In this document: in pieces, positions 27,819 to 41,477 of the stretch
Layout of the letters: every line of letters begins with the position of its first letter
Numbering within the stretch: the stretch's first letter is position 1
NCBI GenBank assembly: GCA_902517895.1
Contig: CABYEA010000010.1
Location: forward strand, 1 to 51,125
Direction of reading: 5' to 3'
Source of the DNA: an uncultured Bacteroidota bacterium
GTDB taxonomy: Bacteria; Bacteroidota; Bacteroidia; Flavobacteriales; Flavobacteriaceae
Length of the DNA stretch: 51,125 nucleotides
Position numbers and translations under genes: made by a program
Notes under the pieces: generated by a model
What the model saw: only the letters and a program-made list of their open reading frames with translations
Databases searched by the model: none
Told to the model about the DNA's origin: nothing

Positions 27819-29549
27819 CTATCTAAATCTTGATTTTTTCTTTTTTCTCTTTTTTGAAGAATTTCTAGAAGCAGATCTTTTACTAGTATTTCTTCTGTCT
27901 CTTCTGTTTCCTCTATTACTTTTAGAAGGTTTTTGTTCGAAATGAGATGGTTCTCCTAAAACCAAATCATTTCCTTTAAAATCAATTTTTTTAATATTTT
28001 TTATAAAATCTTCTTTATAATCTTGATCAATTTCAAAAAATGTTTGATGCCTACTTAATTCAATCTTCCCAATTTCAATACTATTTGATTTTAGCGCTCT
28101 ATTTACAATTGAGATAATATCTAAGGGAGTTGCCCTGTGTTTTCTTCCGATATTAATAGAAAACCCTGTTAATGACTTTCCGTTTCTGTCACCTCTTTTA
28201 GAACTTCTTTTATCTCTAGATCTTTTAGAAGTAAGTTTATTTGATTCCTTGTAATATTTTAAAAATCTATTAAATTCAGCAGACACAAATCTTTTTATTA
28301 ATTCTTCTCTACTTAGCCACTCAAGTTTTTTATATATGTTATCTAAAAATGGTTTGATTTGCTCCTCATCAACATCAACATTTTCAATTTTATCTATCAG
28401 CTTATACAACTGATTTGAACATATTTCATTTCCTGTTGGGACCTCTTTTGGAATGAATTTTATACCTCCCTTTTTTTCAATAGATTTTATTTTTCGTCTT
28501 TCACTTTCATTAGATATAGCAATTGAAATTCCACTTTTTCCAGCTCTAGCTGTTCTACCACTTCTATGAACATAAACCTCAGGATCGTCAGGAAGTGAAT
28601 AATTAATTACGTGTGTAATATTATCAACATCTAAACCTCTCGCTGCAACATCCGTAGCAATTAATATCTGTAAAGACTTATCTCTAAACCTCTGCATCAC
28701 TTCATCTCTTTGATTTTGAGAAAGATCCCCATGAATTGCATCAGCATTATATCCCTCAGCCATGAATTTATTTGCAATATCTTTTGTGTGTCTTTTTGTT
28801 CTGCAAAAAACAATTCCATAGATATTAGGATTAAAATCAGCGATTCTTTTTAATGCCTCATATTTATTTCTTGAGCTTACATTATAAATATGATGCTCTA
28901 TATTTTTTGCGGTTGAATTTATTTTAGAAACGGTAATTTCTTTGGCATCACTCATATATTTTTTTGAGATACTTTTAACCTCTTTTGAAATTGTTGCTGA
29001 AAATAACATTGTTTGCCTATTTGATGAGGTTTTATCCAAAATAAAATCCAAATCATCCTTGAACCCCATGCTAAGCATTTCATCTGCCTCATCTAGAATT
29101 ACCTTATTAACTATTTCTAGTTTTAAATTTTTTCTTTTTAATAAATCTTTAGTTCTACCAGGTGTTCCAACTACAATCTGAACACCTTTTTTTAAAGATT
29201 TAATTTGTGTTTCAATATTGGTGCCTCCGTAAACAGATAAAAGCTTAATACCCTTAACATATTTTGAGTAAGATTCTAAATCTTTACAAATCTGAACACA
29301 TAATTCTCTTGTAGGACATAATATAATTACCTGAACATTTTTATTTTCAACATCAACTTGTTGAATTGCAGGTAAGCCAAAAGCTGCTGTTTTACCCGTT
29401 CCTGTTTGTGCAAGTGAAATAAGATCCTTACTTTCTGTAAGTAAAAATGGAATTGATTCTTTCTGAACTTCTGTGGGTTTTTTAAAACCAAGTTCTTCAA
29501 TTGCTTTACACAAATCTTTATTTACCCCTAATTCTTTAAACTTCGTCAT
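27819..29549 (-). CDS. DEAD-box RNA helicase with DbpA-type RNA-binding domain
   Basis: A 576-residue ATP-dependent RNA helicase. Q motif FKKPTEVQKESIP (22-34), Walker A AQTGTGKT (47-54), PTRELC (79-84), DEAD (153-156), SAT (184-186) and the helicase-C motif HRSGRTARAG (about 331-340) are all seen. After about residue 460 comes FSINIGRKHRATPLDIISIV, the start of a DbpA-like RRM, which in DbpA binds 23S rRNA hairpin 92. The last 35 residues are a very basic Lys/Arg/Ser tail. It most likely works in ribosome assembly or RNA turnover at low temperature (CsdA/DbpA type); the exact role is inferred. Confidence 0.93.
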   Translation of the reverse strand: MTKFKELGVNKDLCKAIEELGFKKPTEVQKESIPFLLTESKDLISLAQTGTGKTAAFGLPAIQQVDVENKNVQVIILCPTRELCVQICKDLESYSKYVKGIKLLSVYGGTNIETQIKSLKKGVQIVVGTPGRTKDLLKRKNLKLEIVNKVILDEADEMLSMGFKDDLDFILDKTSSNRQTMLFSATISKEVKSISKKYMSDAKEITVSKINSTAKNIEHHIYNVSSRNKYEALKRIADFNPNIYGIVFCRTKRHTKDIANKFMAEGYNADAIHGDLSQNQRDEVMQRFRDKSLQILIATDVAARGLDVDNITHVINYSLPDDPEVYVHRSGRTARAGKSGISIAISNESERRKIKSIEKKGGIKFIPKEVPTGNEICSNQLYKLIDKIENVDVDEEQIKPFLDNIYKKLEWLSREELIKRFVSAEFNRFLKYYKESNKLTSKRSRDKRSSKRGDRNGKSLTGFSINIGRKHRATPLDIISIVNRALKSNSIEIGKIELSRHQTFFEIDQDYKEDFIKNIKKIDFKGNDLVLGEPSHFEQKPSKSNRGNRRDRRNTSKRSASRNSSKKRKKKKSRFR

Positions 29550-29669
29550 TGACTTAATTAATCGTGCAAATGTCGACTATTTAATTGGGTATTCAATCAA
29601 AAAAAATAAATTAAAAAATTTTTAATTAATGTCTTTACAATAAACAAATAGATCATTATATTTATACTA

Positions 29670-29726
29670 ATGAAAAAATTATTTGTAAATAACTGGTGGT
29701 GGTCAAATGAAATTAATATTTCGTGA
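29670..29726 (+). CDS. Putative Trp-rich leader peptide of an orphan attenuator
   Basis: The ORF encodes MKKLFVNNWWWSNEINIS then TGA. Three consecutive TGG codons lie at 29694-29702. About 50 nt later a strong terminator begins (29752), the arrangement of classical tryptophan attenuators, where ribosome stalling at Trp codons decides between antiterminator and terminator. Candidate competing pairings: GTGGT within the Trp codons with ACCGC (29731-29735), and GAAAT/ATTTC (29709-29722) around the ORF end. No structural gene follows on this strand. A -7-like TATATTTA at 29657-29664 is too close to the ATG to be convincing. Function is inferred from the pattern alone. Confidence 0.6.
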   Translation: MKKLFVNNWWWSNEINIS

Positions 29727-29751
29727 GGTAACCGCTATTATAACAATATTT

Positions 29752-29786
29752 AAAAAGCTTATCAATCACGATAAGCTTTTTTTTTT
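29752..29786 (+). terminator. Terminator hairpin after the Trp-rich leader
   Basis: AAAAAGCTTATC and GATAAGCTTTTT (29752-29763 and 29770-29781) pair perfectly over 12 bp with loop AATCAC, followed by more T to 29786. It is a plus-strand intrinsic terminator and would end a transcript of roughly 120-160 nt that contains only the leader ORF. Confidence 0.85.
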
Positions 29787-29834
29787 AAATTTTAAATTAT
29801 ATAGTTAGTAATTAGTTTTAGTTTGTTTATGTTT

Positions 29835-29871
29835 AATTTGGGGGGATATTTAATATACCCCCCAAATTTTT
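29835..29871. terminator. Strong G6/C6 hairpin downstream of kdtA
   Basis: AATTTGGGGGG (29835-29845) and CCCCCCAAATT (29858-29868) pair perfectly over 11 bp around a 12-nt AT loop, the most GC-dense stem in the spacer. On the plus strand it runs into five T (29867-29871). On the minus strand it starts just after the kdtA stop but lacks a long T tract. Probably a bidirectional barrier or minus-strand 3' end stabiliser. Confidence 0.6.
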
Positions 29872-29872
29872 G

Positions 29873-31093
29873 TTATAAATATTGTAGAATTATTTCAACG
29901 GCTCCTTTATTTTTTTTAAAATATTTGGTGCATTTTTCTGACATTTTTCTTCTCATATTTTCATCACAAATAATTAAATCTAGTGCACTACTAAATTCTT
30001 TATAATTTCTAATGCTTATCACATTCCCGTTACTAATCATCTTTTCTGCTTCTTCAAAGCCCTTGTAATTTTTTCCTATAATTATAGGTTTTGAAAAGTA
30101 AGCAGGCTCTAATATATTGTGCAATCCTTTTGTACCCATTCCACCTCCCACATAGGCAACCGTACAGTAACCATACAAAGATGATAGCATTCCTATGTTG
30201 TCAATAATTAAACTTGAAAATTTTTTCAAATTGGAATTTGATTTTATTTTTGAAAATAAAACAGAATTATCTCCTAAATACTCTTTAATCCTTTCTGAAT
30301 TTTTATCAATTTCATGTGGCACTAAAATGTATTTGATTTTTTTATTACAATTATTAATGTATTTAATAATTAATTCCTCATCTTCTACCCATGTACTCCC
30401 AAAAACTACACAATTATTTCTTTCAATAAATCTATTTATAATTTCATCAATATCAATTTTAAGTTTTGGGATAATAGTGTCATATCTCAAATCACCAACA
30501 ACAATTACATTTTTATTACCAATATCCTCAGCTATTTTTTTTGACTTTTGATTTAAAACAAAAATGGAATCAAATTCCTTTATTGCTGAATTTATTTTAA
30601 ATATTTTTTTAAAATAATTTGAGGAAAAATTACCTCCGATAGAGTAAAGTTTTGAACCACTCATTTTTGCATGTTTAATAAAATTTGGCCAAATTTCGTT
30701 TTTGATAAAAAATGTAGCCCTAGGAGAAATTATTTTATAAAATTCAATACAATTTTTATTTGATTCGAGAGGTAGATAAATCACACAATCAAATAGATCT
30801 ATATTAGCATTTTCATAGCCTGAAGGTGAAATAAATGATAAGAGAAACTTATAATCATTAAACTTGTACTTAAGATGTGCAATTAATTTTTCGGACATTA
30901 AATATTCCCCATGGGATGCGCAGTGAATATGTATAATATTATCATTTTTTTTAAATGATGATTTTAGTTTTTTAAAACTATACTTTCTGCCTATAATACC
31001 TTTTTCGATTTTTTTTGAAAAAGGAGCGCAGATTTTTAGCCCAACTTCAAATATTTTAATTAATAGTGAATTAATATTGCCGGTTTTAAACAA
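29873..31093 (-). CDS. waaA: 3-deoxy-D-manno-octulosonic acid (Kdo) transferase
   Basis: Transfers Kdo to lipid A at the inner membrane, the first step of LPS core assembly. The 406-residue protein has the GT30 catalytic region IHIHCASHGEYL with Glu63, FIKNEIWPNFI (about 130-140), VVGDLRYDTI (about 203-212), and the C-terminal nucleotide-sugar domain with GGGMGTKGLHNILEPA (about 321-336). The start is TTG 31093 because an in-frame stop lies three codons upstream and no ATG precedes the conserved N-terminal helix. It is the last gene of the minus-strand run that starts with etfB; 75 nt separate it from lspA. Confidence 0.95.
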   Translation of the reverse strand: MFKTGNINSLLIKIFEVGLKICAPFSKKIEKGIIGRKYSFKKLKSSFKKNDNIIHIHCASHGEYLMSEKLIAHLKYKFNDYKFLLSFISPSGYENANIDLFDCVIYLPLESNKNCIEFYKIISPRATFFIKNEIWPNFIKHAKMSGSKLYSIGGNFSSNYFKKIFKINSAIKEFDSIFVLNQKSKKIAEDIGNKNVIVVGDLRYDTIIPKLKIDIDEIINRFIERNNCVVFGSTWVEDEELIIKYINNCNKKIKYILVPHEIDKNSERIKEYLGDNSVLFSKIKSNSNLKKFSSLIIDNIGMLSSLYGYCTVAYVGGGMGTKGLHNILEPAYFSKPIIIGKNYKGFEEAEKMISNGNVISIRNYKEFSSALDLIICDENMRRKMSEKCTKYFKKNKGAVEIILQYL

Positions 31094-38855: not shown

Positions 38856-41477
38856 ATGAATTCAATGATGATTTACATGCCGATAATCATGTCAGTGTTA
38901 GGCCTTGTTTATGTTTTTATAAGAAGGTCTTGGGTGATGAAACAAGATGCGGGTGACGGAAAAATGAAAGAGATTTCTGATCATATATATGAAGGTGCAT
39001 TAGCCTTTTTAAATGCTGAATATCGTTTATTAACTGTATTTGTATTAGTGGTAAGTGCAGTTCTTGCAGGTATATCATTTATTGTACCTACAACTCACAT
39101 TTTAATTGTGGTATCATTTATTTTTGGAGCATTTTTTTCTGCTTATGCTGGTAACATAGGAATGAAGATTGCTACCAAGACAAATGTTAGAACTACACAG
39201 GCTGCTAAAACATCTTTACCAAATGCACTTAAAATTTCATTTGCTGGTGGAACAGTTATGGGGTTAGGCGTAGCAGGTTTAGCTGTATTAGGTCTAACAG
39301 CTTTTTTTATCATATTCTTTAACCATTTTATGGGTGGTGTTTGGGTCGATACTGATTATGGATCTGCCAGTGATACAATGACTATAGTTTTAGAAACTCT
39401 TGCTGGATTTTCATTAGGAGCAGAATCAATTGCTTTATTTGCAAGAGTTGGTGGTGGAATTTACACAAAAGCTGCAGATGTTGGTGCTGATTTAGTTGGA
39501 AAAGTTGAAGCTGGAATCCCAGAAGATGATCCACGAAATCCAGCTACAATTGCTGATAATGTAGGAGATAATGTAGGTGATGTTGCTGGTATGGGAGCTG
39601 ACTTATTTGGTTCATATGTAGCAACGGTCCTCGCTGCTATGGTACTCGGAAATTATGTTATTATTGATATGGGAGGCTTTATTGACGATTCTTTCGGGGG
39701 AATTGGACCAATTTTATTACCAATGGCTATAGCTGGACTAGGTATTATTATATCTCTAATAGGAACACTATTTGTAAAAATAAATTCTAACGATGCTAAG
39801 GAGGCCGAAGTTATGGGTGCTCTTAATAAAGGAAATGGGATTTCTATTATACTAGTTGCATTTTCATGTTTTTTCCTAGTTGACTATATGCTTCCCGAAA
39901 CTCTAAATATGGAGTTTTTTGGTGAAGGATTAAAAGATATTGCTTCAATTAATGTATTCTACGCTACATTAACAGGTTTAATTGTTGGCTGGTTTATTTC
40001 TGCAATTACTGAATATTATACAGGATTGGGTAAAAAACCTGTTCTTGAAATCGTTCAAAAATCAAGTACTGGTGCAGCTACCAATATTATCGCAGGTTTA
40101 GCAACTGGTATGATTTCAACTTTTGGATCAGTAATCTTATTTGCAGCTGCAATATGGGCAGCATATGCTTTTGCTGGTTTTTACGGAGTAGCTTTATCTG
40201 CTTCAGCTATGATGGCAACAACTGGAATGCAATTAGCAATTGATGCTTTTGGCCCAATATCCGACAATGCGGGTGGAGTTGCCGAAATGAGTGGACAAGA
40301 TCCCATTGTAAGGGAAAGAACAGATATATTAGATTCAGTCGGAAATACTACGGCAGCTACCGGAAAAGGTTTTGCAATTGCTTCTGCAGCCCTTACTTCG
40401 CTTGCATTATTTGCAGCTTATGTCACATTCACTGGAATTGAAGGTATAAATATATTTAAAGCTCCCGTTTTAGCAATGTTATTTATTGGAGGTATGGTTC
40501 CTGTGGTATTTTCAGCTCTAGCCATGAATGCAGTTGGAAAGGCTGCTATGGAAATGGTTTATGAGGTTAGAAGACAATTTAAAGATATTCCTGGAATTAT
40601 GAAGGGTAAGGCTAAGCCTGAATATGATAAATGTGTTGATATCTCAACTAAAGCATCTCTTAAAGAAATGATGTTGCCAGGAATATTAACAATAGGAACT
40701 CCTATAATTATTACAGTTTTACCAATGTTATTCGGACTAGACAACCAATTAATCGCTGAAATGCTTGGTGGATATATGGCTGGAGTAACGGTCAGTGGAG
40801 TTTTATGGGCAATTTTCCAAAACAACGCTGGTGGTGCGTGGGATAATGCAAAAAAATCTTTTGAGGCAGGCGTTGAAATTAACGGAGAAATGACATTCAA
40901 AGGTTCCGATGCCCATAAGGCATCAGTTACCGGAGATACAGTTGGAGATCCTTTTAAAGACACATCAGGGCCATCAATGAATATTCTTATCAAACTTACG
41001 TGTTTAATAGGCTTGGTAATTGCTCCAATATTAGGAGGTCATGAAGCTCATAATGTTGAACACAAATCAGTAACATATATTTATGACGCTACATATCTTG
41101 ACACATTCGAAATGGGTAATGAGGAAAAAGTATTAATTGTACAATCTATGGTGAGAGATTTAATAGCTAAAGATTACACTAAAGTTGCTGAATATCTTTC
41201 AGAAGATGTTGTTTTTAATCTTTCTGATGGTTCACTAATCGAAGGTAAGGAATCTGCCATGAAACATATTTCAGGTACATATTCTGCAGTTGATATTGAA
41301 GATTATAGTGTAGCTGTTAACCTTGCAGTTACTGGGGATAATGGTGACGAATGGGTTTTACTATGGGACGAAGGAAAGATAGTTGAATCAGCCGGTGAAT
41401 CAACAATTAAAAGCTGGATGGAATCTTTTCGTTTTGACGGAGATAAAATTAATTTTATTAATATGTATTCCAAATAA
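38856..41477 (+). CDS. hppA: Membrane ion-translocating pyrophosphatase with C-terminal NTF2/SnoaL-like extension
   Basis: Hydrolyses pyrophosphate to pump H+ or Na+ across the inner membrane. The 873-residue protein has about 16 membrane helices and the M-PPase catalytic loops: [16 protein letters not shown] (about 204-219) with [21 protein letters not shown], and [11 protein letters not shown]. The site [10 protein letters not shown] has Ala500 and Gly503 where potassium-independent enzymes have Lys; this points to the potassium-dependent class. Whether H+ or Na+ is moved cannot be told. After the last helix ([11 protein letters not shown]) residues about 750-873 form an extra soluble domain ([20 protein letters not shown], then YLSEDVVF ... 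GKESAMKHI, ending [20 protein letters not shown]) that looks like an NTF2/SnoaL fold. A terminator follows. Confidence 0.93.

What the first reader, a model, noticed from the sequence alone, without database searches (positions are those of the whole stretch)
29670..29786. Orphan tryptophan-leader attenuator with no trp genes behind it
An 18-codon plus-strand ORF contains three tandem TGG codons (29694-29702) in an otherwise AT-rich spacer, then a stop (29724-29726), then about 25 nt later a perfect 12-bp terminator with T tract. Distance from Trp codons to terminator (about 50 nt) matches classical attenuators. But the next gene lies on the opposite strand, and a second hairpin (29835-29871) seals the plus strand. 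So either the trp operon moved away and left its leader, or the short transcript is itself functional. In Sinorhizobium a trp attenuator RNA and its peptide act in trans, so a free-standing Trp-sensing RNA is conceivable.
Basis: partly seen in the sequence, partly recalled or inferred. Interest (0 to 1): 0.8.

Follow-up and report, generated by a model that had tools for sequence, protein, structure and literature searches.

The report
Tryptophan leader left without its operon
A marine bacterium keeps an intact tryptophan-sensing switch at a spot where its close relatives carry the tryptophan-making genes, a one-gene substitute or nothing, so the switch looks like the empty version of a site where these genes come and go.

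Summary
In detail: an 18-codon ORF with three Trp codons, a TGA and a 12-bp terminator lie at 29670-29786, with no trp gene behind them. The element matches Rfam Bacteroid-trp (RF01692) below its gathering score (38.6 vs 49 bits). A model built from the genus finds 19 strong copies in 17 of 21 same-genus genomes: ten directly before trpEGDCFBA, seven (the window included) orphans in assemblies without trpE, trpB or trpC, one before a lone trpB2, one as a second copy behind trpA. Fifteen of 19 adjoin the helicase gene; the others lie in the same neighbourhood. In G019 the operon is 92-98% identical to that of G008/G014/G002, whose flanks match it at 73-87%, while its flanks are 93-96% identical to trp-less G009: the operon was imported at the leader. 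Left and right flanks have conflicting histories, in the window too. The orphan is best read as the cargo-less allele of an exchange site. Start, Trp codons, stop and terminator stem are invariant in the orphans, but the rest evolves faster than in trp-bearing copies. A trans function is possible but unshown.

The parts
29634..29669 (+). Promoter-like region; TATATTTA at 29657-29664, 5 nt before the ATG, so the transcript may be nearly leaderless (inference; Bacteroidota promoter form recalled)
   Evidence: TTTACA-17-TATATT, 10 of 12, but such sites are about as frequent as in shuffles; TATNTTT before the ATG is kept in 18 of 18 aligned copies, with A to C at the fourth base in G007
29670..29726 (+). 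Leader peptide ORF MKKLFVNNWWWSNEINIS, stop TGA
   Evidence: 18-codon ORF with WWW in 19 of 19 genus copies (G003 also has an in-frame ATG further upstream)
29694..29702 (+). Three tandem Trp codons
   Evidence: Invariant in 18 of 18 aligned copies; 0 of 9 sites vary among 8 orphan-type copies
29694..29737 (+). Hairpin 1:2: the Trp codons pair with ACCGCTA, and ATGAAAT pairs with ATTTCGT
   Evidence: 87.9% of cells paired; no covariation support beyond shuffles
29721..29771 (+). Antiterminator 2:3: TCGTGAGGTA (29721-29730) pairs with TATC..TCACGA (29760-29763, 29766-29771)
   Evidence: 95.3% of cells paired; one double change G-C to A-U in G007/G012
29752..29786 (+). Intrinsic terminator 3:4 with T-run; also terminator-like on the minus strand
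29787..29834 (+). AT-rich tract shared with orphans G009/G020/G006 (75-77%) but not with G012/G007/G003 (51-53%): right-hand ancestry starts here
29835..29868 (.). Second hairpin (G6/C6); by eye in the position of the hairpin that precedes trpE in several trp-bearing relatives
27819..29549 (-). DEAD-box RNA helicase, divergent from the leader; left border of the exchange site
29873..31093 (-). waaA-like gene, convergent with the leader; right border of the exchange site

Best explanation
The element is a complete ribosome-controlled tryptophan attenuator of the Bacteroid-trp kind, and its orphan state is the cargo-less allele of a fixed exchange site between the DEAD-box helicase gene and waaA. 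Across this genus of marine Flavobacteriaceae the same leader in the same neighbourhood carries trpEGDCFBA, a lone trpB2, or nothing; the alternatives have been swapped by recombination in or beside the leader (shown by sequence comparison for the operon in G019 and, less directly, for trpB2 in G013). In the window the crossover lies just behind the terminator: helicase and leader are of one ancestry, waaA and beyond of another. The RNA should still switch (inferred): with ample Trp the ribosome runs to the TGA, 2:3 cannot form and transcription stops at about 29786 (RNA of about 115 nt); with little charged tRNA-Trp it stalls on the three UGG codons, 2:3 forms and RNA polymerase reads on towards the second hairpin (about 200 nt). 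With no gene behind it there is no cis output. The leader persists because loss of the operon leaves it behind, because leader sequences are exchanged among relatives, and possibly because it gives incoming trp DNA a matching arm and a ready regulator.
For: Leader directly before trpE in 10 of 10 trpE copies found in the genus. Seven orphans with unbroken helicase-leader-(PQQ-dehydrogenase-like)-waaA contigs (in G007 waaA is cut by the contig end) and no trpE, trpB or trpC in the assembly (trpB judged by cross-match of the TIGR01415 model). G019: leader-trpEGDCFBA-leader; operon 92-98% identical to G008/G014/G002, whose flanks match G019 at 73-87%, while its flanks match trp-less G009 at 93-96%; the 5' leader has a G009-like left spacer (94%) and donor-like sequence after the terminator (96-100%), the 3' copy is followed by G009-like sequence (97%). 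G018: trpE to trpB 93-96% identical to G011, against 80% for rpoB and the helicase gene. trpB2 behind the leader in G013 while its sister G012 (rpoB 97%) is an orphan. Flank trees conflict: AU p = 1.3e-9 and 3e-51 (groups named after seeing the trees). rpoB tree: 4 changes between trp and orphan, at least 2 forced by well-supported branches.
Against: Genomes are 56-86% complete, so a trp operon missed in every orphan assembly, though unlikely in seven, is not strictly excluded. G019 alone shows the two-leader structure, and an illegitimate join on its right side is not excluded. Exchange is not confined to the cargo: G018's whole right flank is G011-like too (86-94%), G002 looks like a swap of the helicase gene, and G019's mutS and the gene next to it are nearer to trp-bearing G016 (99 and 97%) than to G009 (95%). 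No formal hotspot test was made; breakpoints were judged from segment identities of five chosen genomes. The AU test on rpoB for G019 with its donors was not significant (p = 0.256), so the import rests on identity levels and on the trp tree. Transcription and switching are untested.
Confidence: 0.7

Rival explanations
1. The orphan is a working trans-acting RNA and/or peptide gene: the short Trp-dependent RNA, or its WWW peptide, regulates other genes, as rnTrpL/peTrpL do in Sinorhizobium.
For: Start, Trp codons, stop and terminator stem: 0 of 37 sites vary among 8 orphan-type copies, against 39 of 76 other sites (p = 2e-9; four F-type orphans 0 of 37 against 20 of 76, p = 1.4e-4). Random substitution at the observed numbers rarely keeps all features (1 to 26 of 4000 for the six pairs with 7 or more changes, 112 of 4000 for the pair with 5). 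Antiterminator double change in G007/G012. The ATG lies close to the promoter-like box, as in rnTrpL, which starts at its ATG (PMC7298713, passages).
Against: The same pattern is expected if selection acted mostly before operon loss or if leaders are exchanged with trp-bearing relatives; trp-bearing rows show it too (2 of 37 against 42 of 76). Relative to deaD four-fold sites orphan leaders evolve faster: F-type pairs 0.088-0.122 against 0.295-0.394, G007/G012 0.044 against 0.040, G006/G009/G020 pairs 0.070-0.088 against 0.565-0.635; trp-bearing pairs 0.018-0.053 against 0.062-0.636. The antiterminator is on average somewhat weaker in orphans. No target is known.
Confidence: 0.15
2. Only the hairpin matters: it is kept as a two-way terminator that insulates waaA from the helicase gene, and the ORF is a passenger.
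For: The hairpin scores as a terminator on both strands in the window; no stem pair breaks in orphans apart from the outermost A-T pair; waaA transcription runs towards it.
Against: Start, Trp and stop codons are also invariant (0 of 15 sites against 39 of 76 others, p = 8e-5), as is most of the antiterminator, which a plain terminator does not need. In G009 the scan did not list this hairpin, only the second one.
Confidence: 0.1
3. Readthrough under Trp starvation makes an antisense RNA to the 3' end of waaA (or the PQQ-dehydrogenase-like gene) and tunes it.
For: The genes are convergent and the leader points at them.
Against: A second plus-strand terminator-like hairpin follows in the two orphans scanned besides the window (G009, G012), and the gene opposite differs between orphans.
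Confidence: 0.03
4. Assembly artefact: the operon collapsed out between repeated leaders.
For: G019 shows that two leader copies can flank the operon.
Confidence: 0.02

Closest known systems
Bacteroid-trp leader RNA (RF01692; Weinberg et al. 2010, PMC2864571, only its table row seen)
   Same: Trp-codon leader ORF, alternative hairpins, terminator (family anatomy recalled); Bacteroidetes; relatives upstream of trpE in the wider family
   Different: Scores below the gathering threshold (38.6 vs 49 bits; only 1 of 21 genus genomes passes); stands without a downstream gene
Sinorhizobium meliloti trp attenuator products rnTrpL and peTrpL (PMC7298713, abstract and passages)
   Same: Attenuator-derived short RNA with a Trp-rich leader peptide and its ATG near the 5' end
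   Different: There the leader still precedes trpE(G) and trans activity was measured; here there is no cis gene and no evidence of a target
Candidate trp attenuator before trpB2A in Corynebacterium diphtheriae (PMC1262725, passages)
   Same: A Trp attenuator before a trpB2-type gene, as in G013 and G186
   Different: Different phylum, trpB2 with trpA; here a lone TrpB-like gene of TIGR01415 takes the operon's place at the same leader

Membership tests
Bacteroid-trp (RF01692) | Covariance-model score at or above the gathering score | tested here: not met
   38.6 bits against 49 for the window, E 0.0039; an overlapping sub-threshold match to FsrA (26.1 bits, gathering 80) has E 0.0021; same-genus G017 passes RF01692 with 51.2
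Bacteroid-trp (RF01692) | Homology to leaders that do precede trp genes | tested here: met
   Genus model R1: 127.3 bits for the window (which was among the 18 sequences in the model); outside the genus 101 of 101 printed leaders whose trpE place was also printed lie 49-302 nt before trpE
Ribosome-mediated trp attenuator | Short ORF with tandem Trp codons placed before alternative hairpins and a terminator | tested here: met
Ribosome-mediated trp attenuator | Mutually exclusive 1:2, 2:3 and 3:4 pairings conserved among relatives | tested here: met
   Cells paired 87.9%, 95.3% and 97.5%; covariation is scanty: one double change each in 2:3 and 3:4, none beyond shuffles in 1:2
Ribosome-mediated trp attenuator | A downstream gene whose transcription it controls | tested here: not met
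   None on the plus strand; the next gene is convergent
Ribosome-mediated trp attenuator | Trp-dependent termination | not testable with these tools
   No expression data
Trans-acting attenuator sRNA (rnTrpL type) | A released short RNA that acts on other mRNAs | not testable with these tools
   No RNA data; no targets sought

The most novel reading that the evidence does not exclude
The leader is a selected socket: trp-less cells keep a homologous, ready-regulated landing site, so that one crossover with DNA from trp-bearing neighbours restores regulated Trp synthesis (whole operon or trpB2), making Trp prototrophy a reversible, population-level trait governed by an attenuator sequence that serves both as regulator and as recombination arm.
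Probability: 0.2. Interest if true: 0.75.

Novelty: new variant of a known kind. Interest (0 to 1): 0.55.

Why it matters
It gives a clean case of a biosynthetic operon that appears and disappears at one site while its attenuator stays. That makes testable how marine bacteria flip between making and importing an amino acid, whether a leftover regulator is scrap, an sRNA or a recombination arm, and it warns that Trp leaders cannot be taken as proof of a trp operon.

Tried and rejected
Considered and set aside: a leader with its operon elsewhere in the same genome (no trpE, trpB or trpC found; the one chorismate-binding hit in G000 lies behind a methyltransferase-like ORF and looks by eye like a menaquinone-pathway gene); orphan leaders outside the genus (of 47 printed leader places with no printed trpE place, four have trpE in a fetched locus, G186 has trpB2, G042 and G108 precede an aspartokinase-like gene, G169 has a broken but adjacent trpE, and 39 were not checked; the places of about 36 more matching genomes were not printed); a viral carrier of the leader (no exact match to the leader pattern in the viral collection); covariation as proof of the 1:2 hairpin (none beyond shuffles); the rpoB AU test for G019 (not significant). 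Paper searches for an orphan trp leader or leader-guided exchange of the trp operon showed nothing of the kind by title and abstract start; three of those lists were capped (12 of 20, 12 of 42, 8 of 18), only open-licence full texts are held, and I opened three papers, in passages.

Full report
What is there. The window holds, on the plus strand between a DEAD-box helicase gene and a waaA-like gene (both minus), an 18-codon ORF MKKLFVNNWWWSNEINIS, a TGA, and a 12-bp terminator with a T-run. The leader folds well beyond shuffles (z = -4.98). Rfam's Bacteroid-trp model RF01692 matches 29650-29763 at 38.6 bits, under its gathering score of 49; a sub-threshold FsrA match (26.1 bits, gathering 80) overlaps it. 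The ordinary Rfam scan at gathering score therefore lists only two tRNAs.

How it should work. In the ribosome-free fold the three UGG codons pair with ACCGCUA and AUGAAAU pairs with AUUUCGU (1:2), and the terminator stands (3:4). The strand UCGUGAGGUA can instead pair with UAUC..UCACGA in the terminator loop and stem (2:3), which excludes the terminator. Across 18 aligned genus copies (of 19; 17 distinct rows) 87.9%, 95.3% and 97.5% of the cells of the three helices pair. Covariation is thin: one double change in 2:3 (G007 and G012, both orphans), one in 3:4 (G017, trp-bearing), none beyond shuffles in 1:2. G003 breaks two pairs of 2:3 in this register; by eye UCAUGAU could pair with AUCAUGA one base aside (tested only as a fold energy). 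That a stalled ribosome frees strand 2 is the classical mechanism and is inferred, not shown.

Census in the genus. All 21 same-genus genomes held (56-86% complete) were searched. The genus model R1 finds 19 strong copies (105 bits or more) in 17 of 21; weaker hits at 32-36 bits were not counted, several of them being the opposite strand of the same hairpin. Ten copies stand directly before trpE and the set E-G-D-C-F-B-A: G001, G002 (two contigs; 6% contamination), G008, G011, G014, G015, G017, G018, G019. All 10 trpE copies of the genus have the leader. G016 has trp genes cut by a contig end, with no leader in the assembly. Seven copies are orphans: G000 (window), G003, G006, G007, G009, G012, G020; none of these assemblies has trpE, trpB (by cross-match) or trpC, and the genomes with trpC are exactly the ten trp-bearing ones, G016 included. 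G013 has the leader before a lone TrpB-like gene (TIGR01415, 623 bits, cut-off 519; NF009057 717.5 bits, cut-off 366). G019 has a second leader right behind trpA. Fifteen of the 19 copies adjoin the helicase gene; in G001, G015 and G017 that gene is not found there but mutS lies to the left and lspA or waaA to the right, and the nineteenth is G019's second copy. G004, G005 and G010 have no strong leader, trpE, trpB, trpC or helicase match (G010 one R1 hit of 33.7 bits) and are undecided. Names include MED-G13, MED649, NAT90 and isolates AG-/AH-, which I recall as single-cell genome names although some titles say MAG.

An exchange site. rpoB (20 of 21 genomes) gives a tree in which trp-bearing and orphan genomes are mixed: four changes on the best tree, two forced by well-supported branches. 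Identities tell how. G019's flanks are 93-96% identical to those of trp-less G009 on both sides, yet its trp genes are 92-98% identical to those of G008, G014 and G002, whose flanking genes match G019 at 73-87% and whose rpoB at 87%. Its outermost left genes, mutS and the GH97-like gene, are nearer still to trp-bearing G016 (99 and 97%), whose trp genes match G019 at only 84-91%. G018's trpE to trpB are 93-96% identical to G011's (trpA 82%), with rpoB and the helicase gene at 80%; its right flank is also G011-like (86-94%), so more than the cargo moved. The concatenated trp tree puts G019 among G008/G014/G002 and rejects grouping with G011/G016 (p = 2e-17); the converse test on rpoB is not significant (p = 0.256). 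At the joints, G019's left spacer is G009-like (94% against 78-84% for the donors) and the sequence after its 5' terminator donor-like (96-100% against 41%); the sequence after its 3' leader is G009-like (97%). This is what a crossover inside the leader would leave; whether the right side came from a circular molecule or from an illegitimate join cannot be told. G013, whose right flank is 94-99% identical to orphan G012, has helicase and left spacer of G012's kind (94% and 91%) but a leader body like G019's (95-100% against 78-82%), so leader body and trpB2 differ from the sister together. Trees from the helicase gene and from lspA-fabD-folA-thyA conflict strongly (14 genomes; groups chosen after seeing the trees). 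The window itself is such a mosaic: helicase head, spacer and leader 87-93% identical to G012/G007/G003, the stretch after the terminator 75-77% identical to G009/G020/G006 against 51-53%, waaA 84% to G009 against 67% to G012, thyA 96% against 83%.

Is the orphan still used? Among 8 orphan-type copies (7 orphans and G019's 3' copy) 0 of 37 start, Trp, stop and stem sites vary, against 39 of 76 others (p = 2e-9); among the four F-type orphans 0 of 37 against 20 of 76 (p = 1.4e-4). The trp-bearing rows look much the same (2 of 37 against 42 of 76), so the pattern cannot date selection to the orphan phase. Random substitutions at the observed number rarely keep ORF, WWW and both energies together: 1 to 26 of 4000 for six pairs, 112 of 4000 for the closest pair. 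Against continued selection, orphan leaders change faster for their linked silent divergence than trp-bearing ones, G007 and G012 at about the silent rate; antiterminator energies are -8.7 to -11.4 in the seven orphans and -8.7 to -13.4 in trp-bearing copies. I read this as relaxed, perhaps not absent, constraint, complicated by exchange of leaders.

Outside the genus. Of 249 genomes of the family (which include G000 and G020), 186 have an R1 match and 241 a trpE-like match at 1e-60. I compared the 148 printed leader places outside the genus with the printed trpE places: 101 had one in the same genome, and all 101 lie 49-302 nt before it, median 62; 47 had none printed. Separately, of the 28 best loci outside the genus that were fetched, 27 show trpE on the leader's downstream side and one (G186) trpB2. 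Of the 47, four are covered by those loci, four (G186, G042, G108, G169) were read in full, and 39 were not checked: G186 has a leader before trpB2; G042 and G108 are hits on the leader of an aspartokinase-like gene; G169 has a frame-broken trpE next door. So no second orphan was found outside the genus, within these limits. TrpB2 genes occur in 15 of 249; G186 has a leader upstream by strong model match, G073 by a weak match with visible Trp codons, G227 by eye only, and these three genomes lack a trpE of the usual strength. A similar weak score at another TrpB2 locus (L165) is a hairpin without the Trp part.

Conclusion. The element belongs by homology to the Bacteroid-trp leaders and works like one in every sequence feature tested, but the defining cis gene is missing. 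Best reading: the empty allele of a leader-marked exchange site (0.7). A trans-acting RNA or peptide remains open (0.15).

Noticed in passing
L042:13120-14475 (-), L172, L162, L161: Lone trpB2 genes behind Trp-rich leaders in G013 and in up to three other genera that lack a strong trpE (of 15 TrpB2 loci of the family search: one by strong model match, one by weak match, one by eye).
   Followed up: partly
L157:6996-7125 (-), L158:1421-1530 (-): Leaders before aspartokinase-like genes in G042 and G108 share a GTCGTGAG / GTCATCACGAC core like that of the trp attenuators, so one attenuator core seems to serve two amino acids.
   Followed up: partly
window 29795-29818 and L042:13106-13129 (-): AATTATATAGTTAGTAATTAGTTT after the window's terminator equals, in 23 of 24 bases, the end of trpB2 and what follows it in G013; the orphans of this kind may be scars of a lost trpB2, or trpB2 may have been inserted there.
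   Followed up: partly
L159:7295-9354 (+): G169 has trpE broken by an apparent frame change beside its Trp leader, and the following trpG-like ORF also looks cut short.
   Followed up: no
L036:6863-8206 and the same place in other genomes: A PQQ-dehydrogenase-like gene with a T9SS tail comes and goes between waaA and the cargo site, so the right border also varies.
   Followed up: partly
window 39449-39457: The only other TGGTGGTGG of the window lies inside a long plus-strand ORF.
   Followed up: no
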